A stretch of DNA of 43,306 nt from assembly GCA_018894435.1 (NCBI GenBank), contig JAHIPI010000002.1:1-43306 (forward strand), given 5' to 3'. Below the pieces are notes generated by a model. It was not told where the DNA came from and did no database searches. It worked only from the letters and a program-made list of their open reading frames with translations. Below, piece after piece: positions 2,401 through 32,284 of the stretch. Each line of letters opens with the position of its first letter. Positions within the stretch are counted from its first letter, which is position 1. The DNA is from Candidatus Omnitrophota bacterium (GTDB lineage: Bacteria; Omnitrophota; Gorgyraeia; JAHIPI01). The translations under genes and the position numbers were made by a program.

Positions 2401-3545
2401 TGGTTAATTTTTACATAGCGGCATTTTTGGCCGATTTCGCGGTAGGAGCGGCACTTCTGGCGTTGCCGCTCTTTCTTATTTACAGGTTTGCCGCCTCTTC
2501 GCTTTTACTGGGAATATTGGGCGCTGTCGGGGCGCTGGTTTATTCATCGGGAGTCGTGATAATCGGCAGGATGTCCGATAGATTTAACCGCAAAAAGATA
2601 ATTCTCTTCGGCTGCGGCCTCTTCGTGCTTGTCTATTCAACCGTCCCCTTTTTAAAAACGACAAACCAGATACTTATAGCTTATGCCTTCGGAAGTTTAT
2701 CCATGGCGGCATTTTGGCCAATACTGCAGTCATGGCTTTCTCAAGGACTAGGTAAGCGCGACCTCATGAGATCGCTTACCATTTTTAATATTTCGTGGAG
2801 CGCCGGCCTTATGCTGGGTTTTTTATCCGCCGGTTTTTTGTTTGCGCTTGGCCAAAAGATACCCTTTTTAATCGGTGTTATTTCTATTCTAGCTGCCACG
2901 GTCTTTCTCTATAGGCAGCCGCTTACGCCCGCGATAAAAAAAGACGCCGGCGGAAATATAGCTGTGGAAATATGGGCGGACAAACCGGCAAATTATACGC
3001 CTTTTGTGTACGCGGCCTGGATCGCCAATTTTGTAAGCTGGTTTAATCTAGGAGTTATGCGCAACCTTTTTCCGAAGCTGGGTACGGAGCTGGGGTTTTC
3101 TACTGCCATTGTCGGGACTCTTATTTTTATCATAACATTTGCCCAGACAGCCATGTTTTTCATTCTCGGCAAAACTCACAGATGGCATTATAGGCTGGGG
3201 CCGATGATCCTTTTTCAATTTTTCGCGTTTCTGTCTTTGTGGGTATTTGCTTTTTCATCCCGCACCGTTTACTTCGCGATTGCGGCGGTGTTTTTGGGGT
3301 TATCAGCGGGTGTAACTTACTTTTCAAGCATCTTTTACAGCCTGCACGGTTCAAAGGATAAAGGCAAAAAGAGCGGCCTTCACGAGGCAGTAATCGGTAC
3401 AGGCGCTTTATTTGGGCCGCTTGCCGGAGGATTTTTCGCGGCCGAATTCGGCATACGCGCGCCGTACATCGTCGCAGCGGTTGTGCTGGCAGCTGCAATG
3501 TTGGTAGAGGTAACAATAGTACGCAAACAGCCGTTGAAACACTAA
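2400..3545 (+). CDS. Major facilitator superfamily transporter
   Basis: About 381 residues with roughly 12 hydrophobic segments (for example ADFAVGAALLALPLFLIY at the N-terminus and APYIVAAVVLAAAMLV near the C-terminus). The loop GRMSDRFNRKKI after the second segment matches the MFS loop 2-3 signature G-x3-D-R-x-G-R-R/K. This is a secondary transporter of the inner membrane; the substrate cannot be told. ATG at 2400 overlaps the upstream stop codon by one base, so translation is probably coupled. The stop codon TAA lies at the first bases of the 65-bp repeat at 3543. Confidence 0.85.
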   Translation: MVNFYIAAFLADFAVGAALLALPLFLIYRFAASSLLLGILGAVGALVYSSGVVIIGRMSDRFNRKKIILFGCGLFVLVYSTVPFLKTTNQILIAYAFGSLSMAAFWPILQSWLSQGLGKRDLMRSLTIFNISWSAGLMLGFLSAGFLFALGQKIPFLIGVISILAATVFLYRQPLTPAIKKDAGGNIAVEIWADKPANYTPFVYAAWIANFVSWFNLGVMRNLFPKLGTELGFSTAIVGTLIFIITFAQTAMFFILGKTHRWHYRLGPMILFQFFAFLSLWVFAFSSRTVYFAIAAVFLGLSAGVTYFSSIFYSLHGSKDKGKKSGLHEAVIGTGALFGPLAGGFFAAEFGIRAPYIVAAVVLAAAMLVEVTIVRKQPLKH

Positions 3546-3607
3546 TCTGGCAATTCTAACCTGGTTAGATTTGCCAGGTTAGAATGAACATGTCCCGCGC
3601 CAAGGCC
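3543..3607 (+). repeat. 65-bp repeat element, copy 1 (hairpin-forming)
   Basis: About 90 percent identical to 12121-12185 (six differences by eye). It contains a perfect 12-bp inverted repeat, ATTCTAACCTGG (3553-3564) and its complement (3574-3585), with a 9-nt loop. It supplies the stop of the MFS gene at its left end and AAGG just before the miaA ATG at its right end. Confidence 0.8.
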
Positions 3608-12100: not shown

Positions 12101-12120
12101 CGAAATAGCCATGGAAGCCG

Positions 12121-12185
12121 TAATCTGGCAATTCTAACCTGGTTAGATTTGTCAGGTTACGAGGAACGTGTCCCGCGTCAAGGCA
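12121..12185 (+). repeat. 65-bp repeat element, copy 2
   Basis: Matches 3543-3607 with six differences by eye. The first 31 bases are identical in both copies. The hairpin is degraded here: only AACCTG and CAGGTT still pair. Like copy 1, it ends in AAGGC a few bases before the next start codon, so it may supply the ribosome-binding site. Confidence 0.8.
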
Positions 12186-13731: not shown

Positions 13732-13797
13732 AGCTATCAGTCATCAGCTATCAGCCATCAGCAGCTGAAAGCTGAAAGCTGAAAGCTGAAAGCTGAA
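13732..13797. repeat. Short direct repeats in the leader of the ABC-ATPase gene
   Basis: Five tandem copies of AGCTGAA occupy 13763-13797, ending three bases before the ATG at 13800. Just upstream, related units CTATCAG, TCATCAG, CTATCAG and CCATCAG alternate from about 13733. The copy number looks open to slippage and would change the spacing of the leader. Confidence 0.85.
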
Positions 13798-13799
13798 AA

Positions 13800-30558: not shown

Positions 30559-31347
30559 ATGACAGAAAAAGGAACCAGCATAGTCATACCGGTTTGTAAT
30601 CTTTTAGGTTTTACGCGGATCTCGGTTGATTATATACGCAAAAATACCGATACGCCTTATGAATTGGTCATAGTGGACAACGGATCTACCGACGGGACAA
30701 AGGAGTATTGCGCAGAACTTGCAAATGAGATTGACCTGAAATATATTCCGAACGACACCAATCTCGGGCCAATACTGGCAATAAACCAGGGAATTCGGGC
30801 CGCCAAATACGAATACATATGCCAGATGCATAATGATGCGGTAATATTTGAGCCCGGTTGGCTCGGAAAGATAATATCTATAATGGAAAAGGATCCCAAA
30901 ATAGGCATAGTCTGCCTGGCCGGGCGTCAGTATATACGCAAAGACGCTGGCTGCGACGAAGATACACTTAAGCATAATCTCTTAAGCATAGGGCTCAACC
31001 CACCGATGAAGGAGACCGTGGCCGACGTTGCCGTAATAGACGGGCTATGTTTCGTCTTTACAAAAAGCCTGATCGAAAAGACGGGAGTGTTGGACGAAGT
31101 ATACGGCATGATGCATTTCTATGACATGGACTTTTCGCTTGCCAGCATAAAGGCAGGATACAGAAATGTCGCCGTTAATGTTCTGGCGTTTCACGTAGGG
31201 AACGGCGGAACCACGCGGCGCTCCGATTTCTATAAAAACCTTGTCCCGAACGACCTCAAGTTATATAACAAAAATAGCGCCATATTCCAGAAGAAGTGGA
31301 AAGGGATGCTCCCCTGCGACGTTCGCCGCCACGCCCTGGTGCTGTAA
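30559..31347 (+). CDS. Family 2 glycosyltransferase
   Basis: 262 residues. TSIVIPVCNLLGFTRISVDYIRKNTDTPYELVIVDNGSTDGTKEYC is a standard GT2 opening; YICQMHNDAVIFEPGWL is the D-x-D-like site (HND); FYDMDFSLASIKAGYRNVAVNVLAFHVGNGGTTRR matches the late acidic and His motifs. A GAGGA ribosome-binding site lies 8 bp after the methyltransferase gene. It is the last gene before the 715-bp gap and so probably ends this transcription unit, although no classical terminator follows directly. Confidence 0.88.
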   Translation: MTEKGTSIVIPVCNLLGFTRISVDYIRKNTDTPYELVIVDNGSTDGTKEYCAELANEIDLKYIPNDTNLGPILAINQGIRAAKYEYICQMHNDAVIFEPGWLGKIISIMEKDPKIGIVCLAGRQYIRKDAGCDEDTLKHNLLSIGLNPPMKETVADVAVIDGLCFVFTKSLIEKTGVLDEVYGMMHFYDMDFSLASIKAGYRNVAVNVLAFHVGNGGTTRRSDFYKNLVPNDLKLYNKNSAIFQKKWKGMLPCDVRRHALVL

Positions 31348-31410
31348 AACCCGCCATTTTGACATTTTCCGAGTTCCCTCTCAAGTGCTGCTCAACTTTG
31401 TGGTTGTCTT

Positions 31411-31652
31411 CATAATAATAGTGATACTCTCCGAGCTCAGGTAAAATTTCTTAACGCCTCTCGCTGGCGCCAAAAATCGGGGGCGCTTGAACTCGGCTGG
31501 CACTGCCGTGCCGCCTCATTTCGCCTCCTACGTATCATTGCCAGGTCGGCGAAATCGCCTTCGGCGAACAGCAAGCGCCCTTTTATAAACCGATTTTTGT
31601 CTGGCTCGAGGCTAAAATTTTATTCGCTCGGAGAGGTATCACCATTATTATG
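31411..31652. ncRNA. Structured domain A: nested inverted repeats, candidate RNA or palindromic element
   Basis: Terminal helix: 31411-31436 pairs with 31626-31652 with one mismatch and one bulged base. Inside it, in nested order: TAAAATTT (31442-31449) with 31615-31622; GCCTC (31456-31460) with 31608-31612; CAAAAATCGG (31471-31480) with 31590-31599; GGGCGCTTG (31481-31489) with 31572-31580. The apical part has ATTTCGCC (31518-31525) with 31548-31555, and small hairpins GGCAC/GTGCC (31499-31512) and CGCC-TTC-GGCG (31556-31566). All pairings were read directly from the sequence. No known RNA family was recognised. Confidence 0.55.
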
Positions 31653-31670
31653 GCACTAACGCTGCTTTAG

Positions 31671-31894
31671 AAAAGGAAGCCGGTGTTTTTCGGAGCGAGT
31701 GTCGATTTTAGGCGAAGCAGCTTGAGTAACGAGGGAATCCCGACGTCCCCCGAGAGGGGGACAATGTCGGAATGGCGAAGCTGTCTGAGCCCCGATGGAG
31801 AGCCCATCGGGGCGAGTTCTGAGCCACCGAGTTACGAAAGACCTTCGCCGTAAAGAAATCGACCCCGAGCGGAGAAAAATACCGGATTCCTTTT
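31671..31894 (+). ncRNA. Structured domain B: nested helices with a GNRA-capped hairpin, candidate RNA
   Basis: Terminal helix: AAAAGGAA, CCGG and TGTTTTTC (31671-31691) pair with 31874-31894, with one mismatch and one G-U. Then GTCGATTT (31701-31708) with 31856-31863, and GGCGAAG (31711-31717) with 31843-31849. Inner hairpins: CCGAC (31740-31744) and GTCCCCC (31745-31751) close on a GAGA loop with GGGGGAC (31756-31762) and GTCGG (31766-31770); CCCCGATGG (31790-31798) pairs with CCATCGGGG (31804-31812). CAGCTT (31718-31723) can pair with AAGCTG (31778-31783). GAGA is a GNRA loop only when read on the plus strand, which favours that strand. Confidence 0.55.
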
Positions 31895-32062: not shown

Positions 32063-32284
32063 ATGAAACAATACGCGCTTACCGAGAGACAGTCTACGGT
32101 ATATAACTACATAAGGGACTATTATGGCAAGCATAATATGAGCCCTTATGTCCGCGAAATACAGGAAGCCTGCGGCATAACTTCTTACAAAGTCGCGCTT
32201 GACAGGCTTTCTTCTCTGGAGAAGAAAGGTTATATCCGCCGCAAGCTAAATAAGCACAGAAGTATAATGCTAAACGGTAAATAA
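32063..32284 (+). CDS. Orphan LexA-type winged-helix DNA-binding protein
   Basis: 73 residues. ALTERQSTVYNYIRDYYGKHNMSPYVREIQEACGITSYKVALDRLSSLEKKGYIRRKLNKHRSIML aligns with the N-terminal DNA-binding domain of LexA (LTxRQxxVLxFI, PPSVREI, SxxTVxxHLxxLExKGYIRR). The C-terminal self-cleavage (S24) domain is absent, so it cannot act as a RecA-triggered LexA. It may be a small local repressor. GGAGGGTGG precedes the ATG. It lies directly after the structured 31411-31894 region and 19 bp before an aminotransferase gene, so a role in controlling this part of the glycan locus is plausible but unproven. Confidence 0.85.
   Translation: MKQYALTERQSTVYNYIRDYYGKHNMSPYVREIQEACGITSYKVALDRLSSLEKKGYIRRKLNKHRSIMLNGK

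What the first reader, a model, noticed from the sequence alone, without database searches (positions are those of the whole stretch)
31671..31894. Large structured RNA candidate with nested helices and a GNRA hairpin (domain B)
Nearly every base lies in a nested set of complementary segments: an about 20-bp terminal helix, GTCGATTT and GGCGAAG helices, two strong inner hairpins (one with a GAGA tetraloop on the plus strand), and a possible CAGCTT/AAGCTG helix. GTAAC (31726-31730) inside the latter could pair with GTTAC (31831-31835) as a pseudoknot. Terminal helices alone occur in mobile elements, but this many ordered inner helices, with mismatches and a G-U pair, suggests RNA. I recognise no RNase P, tmRNA, 6S, group II intron or riboswitch core. 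It could be an undescribed ncRNA class.
Basis: partly seen in the sequence, partly recalled or inferred. Interest (0 to 1): 0.72.

Follow-up and report, generated by a model that had tools for sequence, protein, structure and literature searches.

The report
Dispersed branched-fold repeat, possibly mobile
A 224-base stretch of an uncultured Omnitrophota genome is one copy of an unrecorded family of non-coding repeats that fold into the same branched shape in many bacteria; the shape is kept by matched mutations, copies are scattered like a mobile element, and how they spread or what they do is not known.

Summary
The folded element is real and well supported. Window 31671-31894 (B) folds far better than shuffles (z -8.7). 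It is one of two full copies in its genome and belongs to a family found in 64 of 384 genomes of its class and in Elusimicrobia and Aminicenantes; divergent probable relatives occur in a cultured betaproteobacterium. Across 98 copies 43 of 50 base pairs show changes on both sides. A structure-blind alignment with the fold of this copy alone gives 777 double-changed cells, against at most 212 when partners are slid. Two tandem G.A sites swap to Watson-Crick pairs in step; a UGUYUGA/GAGUU internal loop is nearly invariant. No Rfam family matches. B is also dispersed: 4-16 copies per genome in 16 copy-rich genomes, both orientations, no shared neighbour gene, B-free orthologous spacers in relatives. 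The neighbouring palindrome A (31408-31656) is a divergent relative on the minus strand. The proposed pseudoknot is an ordinary nested helix. No promoter signal was found and most copies are antisense to their neighbours, so a simple cis-acting RNA is not favoured. Best reading: a non-autonomous mobile element working as a folded single strand (ssDNA or RNA), served by an unidentified enzyme.

The parts
31671..31894 (+). Element B: complete structured repeat unit
   Evidence: z -8.7; covariance-model core 31695-31871, E 7e-45 (this copy was in the model); second copy G000:C14:4291-4514, 95% identical
31671..31691 (+). 5' arm of terminal helix P1
   Evidence: pairs with 31874-31894; 97 of 97 copies tested have an outer helix scoring above a loose cut-off, median 20 bp, median score 16 versus 6 at random positions; G.T 70, A.C 15
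31874..31894 (+). 3' arm of terminal helix P1
   Evidence: as above; its sequence differs between families but stays complementary
31701..31709 (+). P2 5' arm GTCGATTTT (partner 31855-31863)
   Evidence: 7 of 9 pairs with changes on both sides
31711..31717 (+). P3 5' arm GGCGAAG (partner 31843-31849)
   Evidence: 6 of 7 pairs with changes on both sides
31721..31723 (+). P4 5' arm CTT (partner 31838-31840)
   Evidence: 3 of 3 pairs with changes on both sides
31724..31725 (+). tandem G.A site 1 (partner GA 31836-31837)
   Evidence: GA/GA in 72 of 98 copies; replaced together by TT/AA, TA/TA, AT/AT, AA/TT or GG/CC in 13
31726..31730 (+).
   Evidence: 5 of 5 pairs with changes on both sides; GCAAC/GTTGC in C14
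31731..31732 (+). tandem G.A site 2 (partner GA 31829-31830)
   Evidence: GA/GA in 47 copies; TT/AA 13, TC/GA 11, CC/GG 6
31740..31770 (+). P7 hairpin with GAGA loop (31752-31755)
   Evidence: 7 of 8 pairs of its lower stem with changes on both sides
31773..31776 (+). P8 5' arm TGGC (partner 31823-31826), second arm of the junction
31782..31788 (+). near-invariant internal loop, 5' side TGTCTGA (partner side GAGTT 31814-31818)
   Evidence: TGTNNGA / GAG in nearly all copies; also in the Candidimonas copies
31789..31813 (+). P10 apical hairpin
   Evidence: very variable in sequence but paired
31408..31656 (-). Element A: divergent relative of B on the minus strand, 5' end to 5' end with B
   Evidence: z -10.2 on the minus strand; R3 match 31434-31627 -, E 2.3e-5; its relatives match R2 at E 8e-12 to 0.002; copied together with B at G000:C14:4004-4514

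Best explanation
B is one member of a superfamily of non-autonomous, dispersed elements whose plus strand folds into a fixed branched shape: a long terminal helix, three stacked helices separated by tandem G.A steps, then a junction bearing a short hairpin and a longer arm with a near-invariant UGUYUGA/GAGUU internal loop. Shown: the fold, its covariation, the copy number, dispersal to unrelated intergenic sites, and B-free orthologous spacers. Inferred: the element copies or moves through this folded single strand (single-stranded DNA, or an RNA), recognised by shape and by the unpaired motifs rather than by the terminal-repeat sequence; the enzyme is encoded elsewhere and is not identified.
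For: Two near-identical copies in the own genome at unrelated loci; 64 of 384 class genomes; 4-16 copies in each of 16 copy-rich genomes. Covariation: 43 of 50 pairs, 887 double-changed cells versus 225 +/- 15 shuffled; structure-blind control 777 versus at most 212. Tandem G.A swaps. The unit ends with the terminal helix: L019 versus L021 are alike only over that span. Terminal-helix sequence differs completely between families but stays paired, as expected if shape rather than dsDNA sequence is read. B-free orthologous spacers: GT-LexA-DegT is about 185 bp in G002 and GT-DegT about 90 bp in G001, versus 716 bp here; folD-metF is 4 bp in G114, with B inserted in G297 and G053. Both orientations and no recurrent neighbour gene. 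No upstream promoter signal.
Against: No mobilising enzyme found: Y1 transposase is absent from copy-bearing G053 and G058 and is not among the positives for G331 and G372; reverse transcriptase in 4 of 16 and IS110 in 1 of 16 copy-rich genomes. No target-site duplication seen in the copies inspected. Copy numbers are modest. No excision or de novo insertion was observed; the B-free spacers could in part be losses. Template-switch repair of inverted repeats can also create matched changes without selection on a folded strand.
Confidence: 0.5

Rival explanations
1. B is a functional non-coding RNA (trans-acting or catalytic), present in several diverged copies; the dispersal is secondary.
For: Plus-strand fold with near-invariant unpaired motifs and tandem G.A modules; strand asymmetry in the outer helix, G.T 70 versus A.C 15; the plus strand folds better than the minus strand.
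Against: No promoter enrichment upstream; 44 of 69 copies between co-directional genes are antisense to both; G.T is scarce and barely exceeds A.C in well-paired core columns, 51 versus 35 of about 3,600 cells; absent from most genomes of the class.
Confidence: 0.22
2. B is a gene-end element: inserted behind stop codons, where its hairpin tunes mRNA 3' ends or transcription, like REP/BIME sequences.
For: When the right-hand gene converges on the element its stop codon lies a median 24 bp away; copies occur inside operons, e.g. folD-metF.
Against: Position is equally explained by survival of harmless insertions; the near-invariant loops and tandem G.A modules need a more specific binder; orthologous operons do without it.
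Confidence: 0.13
3. The covariation is mutational: imperfect inverted repeats are re-matched by template switching during replication, and nothing recognises the fold.
For: Long near-perfect terminal helices with freely changing sequence; G.T is scarce.
Against: Template switching would erase mismatches, but tandem G.A steps and the UGUYUGA/GAGUU loop are kept over very diverged copies, within Omnitrophota and beyond; G.T/A.C asymmetry in the outer helix.
Confidence: 0.1
4. B is a guide or bridge RNA of an RNA-guided element (IscB/TnpB omega RNA, IS110 bridge RNA) whose ORF has been lost.
For: Structured, about 200 nt, lies within dispersed units.
Against: No Rfam match at B in eight loci searched up to E 5; no recurrent ORF near 98 copies; IS110 in 1 of 16 copy-rich genomes; its internal loops are conserved, not variable as guides are. 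TnpB/IscB genes were not searched for.
Confidence: 0.03

Closest known systems
Mobile/repeat sequence candidates, e.g. MRSC-65-2 motif (PMC11109978)
   Same: Multi-copy, inconsistent orientation, strong covariation in a structured nucleic acid, many phyla; its authors also leave RNA versus DNA open
   Different: MRSC-65-2 is a single long stem with a UYCCGG repeat; B has a branched fold with conserved internal loops and tandem G.A modules. The paper's other motifs are in supplements that could not be opened here
REP/REPIN sequences and their Y1 transposases (PMC8266576, PMC3116915)
   Same: Dispersed intergenic palindromes with conserved mismatches, processed as folded ssDNA by a separate enzyme; often paired with a second element, as A is with B
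   Different: REPs are 20-50 nt with a GTAG head; B is about 220 nt, has no such head in its consensus, and occurs in genomes without a detected Y1 transposase
Miniature inverted-repeat transposable elements
   Same: Short, non-coding, terminal inverted repeats, dispersed
   Different: The terminal-repeat sequence is not conserved between families, no target duplication was seen, and the interior is a conserved fold
Integron attC sites (from general knowledge)
   Same: Folded-strand recognition with covarying stems and conserved unpaired bases
   Different: attC sites sit in cassette arrays and are usually shorter; no integron context was seen; not formally tested

Membership tests
Any Rfam 15 family | covariance-model match | tested here: not met
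   window at gathering score: none; 8 loci with B copies, E up to 5: only rRNA and one unrelated weak match; 12 further loci: no credible match at an element, only weak sub-threshold ones
REP/REPIN | 20-50 nt palindrome with GTAG head | tested here: not met
   element is about 220 nt and its ends are AATG...CATT or other, not GTAG
REP/REPIN | Y1 (RAYT) transposase in the genome | tested here: not met
   291 of 384 class genomes have Y1_Tnp, but copy-bearing G053 and G058 have none and G331 and G372 are not among the positives; draft genomes, so absence is not proof
MITE | sequence-conserved terminal inverted repeats shared with an autonomous transposon | tested here: not met
   terminal-helix sequence differs between families; no transposase recurs near the copies
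MITE | target-site duplication | tested here: inconclusive
   none seen by eye in the few copy pairs inspected
MRSC-65-2 motif | single long stem with UYCCGG repeat | tested here: not met
   branched fold; no UYCCGG in the consensus of A3
IS110 bridge RNA | IS110 transposase present | tested here: not met
   1 of 16 copy-rich genomes
Group II intron or retron RNA | reverse transcriptase present | tested here: not met
   4 of 16 copy-rich genomes
Integron attC | R box GTTRRRY and cassette context | not tested
   no scan made

The most novel reading that the evidence does not exclude
B and A belong to one ancient cross-phylum superfamily of structured mobile elements, in Omnitrophota, Elusimicrobiota, Aminicenantes and Betaproteobacteria, perhaps also Bacteroidota and Fusobacteriota, that share the UGUYUGA/GAGUU module. 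It is propagated by an unknown enzyme that reads the fold of one strand, or is itself an active RNA.
Probability: 0.3. Interest if true: 0.82.

Novelty: new variant of a known kind. Interest (0 to 1): 0.62.

Why it matters
It adds a large family with a branched, covarying fold to a poorly understood group of multi-copy structured sequences, and shows that compensatory change alone does not separate a functional RNA from a mobile DNA element. The near-invariant internal loop and swappable tandem G.A steps point to a specific binding partner, so the search for the enzyme is well defined. A cultured betaproteobacterium (Candidimonas sp. SYP-B2681) carries probable relatives and makes the question testable at the bench.

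Tried and rejected
Phage link: no blastn match in phages; a pattern scan of viral contigs gave 3 hits, none confirmed by the covariance model. Plasmid blastn with the Candidimonas element: none. A 36-base core-motif query hit Variovorax, Ilyobacter and Parabacteroides spacers that fold around the same motif, suggestive only. Literature search for the core motif as text: nothing. First model R1 had a poor automatic structure and was dropped for R2. A first count of the outer helix over-extended the alignment and was redone. Conserved neighbour protein: none. An IS200-type transposase ORF lies about 100 bp from one copy (G145, L125); a single case among 98, treated as chance. A base-by-base alignment of the empty spacers failed because they have diverged too far; only their lengths are used.

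Full report
What is there. The window is a whole 43.3-kb contig of a 1.57-Mb draft genome. No record names it; sequence relatives of the element are mostly labelled Candidatus Omnitrophota. B (31671-31894) lies between a family-2 glycosyltransferase gene (30559-31347) and a 73-aa LexA-type DNA-binding protein (32063-32284), followed by a DegT aminotransferase. It folds at -112.2 kcal/mol, z -8.7, and also strongly as DNA, z -8.3. No Rfam family matches.

Family. Blastn found a second copy in the own genome, 95% identical, between recG-like and rsmD-like genes (gene names from my reading of the sequence), and 67-73% identical full-length or near full-length copies in two other families of the class. 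A covariance model found copies in 64 of 384 class genomes, 61 of 285 in a phylum sample that overlaps the first, and 4-16 per genome in 16 copy-rich genomes. A pattern scan of named genomes, followed by the model, confirms Omnitrophota, Elusimicrobia (E 7.5e-21) and Aminicenantes (E 1.2e-20), and weakly Candidimonas (E 7e-6). These loci were preselected by the core motif, so the weak E-values are flattering. The Candidimonas genome gives 26 blastn matches, several of them full-length dispersed copies; five align with the same invariant core and changing but paired stems.

Structure. In the alignment of 98 copies, 92.6% of cells pair, 43 of 50 pairs have changes on both sides, and 887 cells are double-changed (225 +/- 15 shuffled, at most 164 slid). 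That alignment was fitted to the model, so I repeated the count on a structure-blind alignment with the fold of the window copy alone: 88.1% paired, 50 of 58 pairs, 777 cells, at most 212 slid. Two tandem G.A steps are replaced in step by Watson-Crick pairs, and the UGUYUGA/GAGUU loop hardly changes.

Which strand, which molecule. Tandem G.A would be T.C on the other strand, and G.T exceeds A.C in the outer helix 70 to 15, so the plus strand is the folded one. In well-paired core columns the excess is small, 51 to 35. No promoter signal precedes the copies. Flank GC skew on the element strand is negative in 66 of 98 and antisense placement dominates (44 versus 25); both tests ignore relatedness among copies. 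RNA and single-stranded DNA both remain possible.

Mobility. Copies lie in unrelated spacers with no shared neighbour. Near-identical copies in G053 are alike only over the element. Orthologous spacers in relatives lack it: about 185 bp (G002) and 90 bp (G001) against 716 bp in the window, and 4 bp between folD and metF in G114 where G297 and G053 carry B. In G362 the core is inverted relative to its flanks. A second structured module precedes B in 29 of 94 copies and follows it in 6 of 94 (p 2e-5). In the window that module is A, a divergent relative on the minus strand.

Mechanism. I favour a non-autonomous element read as a folded strand (0.5). The enzyme is unknown: Y1 transposases, reverse transcriptases and IS110 transposases are each missing from carriers.

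Known relatives. The nearest published kind is the mobile/repeat candidate group, e.g. MRSC-65-2, a single stem (PMC11109978). REPs are shorter and have a GTAG head (PMC8266576). I did not find this family described; supplementary files and subscription papers were not available.

Noticed in passing
window 31408-31656 (-): A second large palindrome, a divergent relative of B in opposite orientation, with further copies or pieces in the own genome (C14, C80, C40) and in family relatives G002 and G003.
   Followed up: partly
window 3525-3606 and 12103-12184: An 82-nt palindromic repeat, 85% identical between the two copies, with TAATCTGGCAATTCTAACCTGGTTAGATTTG exact in both; its ends resemble the AATCTGGCAA ends of some B copies.
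   Followed up: partly
window 13732-13798: Two adjacent short tandem repeats (AGCTATCAGCCATC x2.2, then AGCTGAA x5.1).
   Followed up: no
L094, L019, L066, L104: about 20-260 nt upstream of B, minus strand: Other very stable structured repeats (some with TTTTTTGGCAAAAGT ... GGCAAAAAAT arms), probably further families of dispersed structured elements in these genomes.
   Followed up: partly
L275, L276, L277 (Variovorax, Ilyobacter, Parabacteroides plasmids): Intergenic palindromes centred on TGTYTGAGCGAAGCGAGTT and followed by a TACTTT/AAAGTA-type hairpin; possible far relatives in Betaproteobacteria, Fusobacteriota and Bacteroidota.
   Followed up: partly
L042 versus L076 (G362): The element core is inverted relative to its shared flanks, as if flipped between its inverted repeats.
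   Followed up: no
L125 2503-2874 (-) (G145): An IS200-type Y1 transposase ORF lies about 100 bp from one B copy; a single case.
   Followed up: partly
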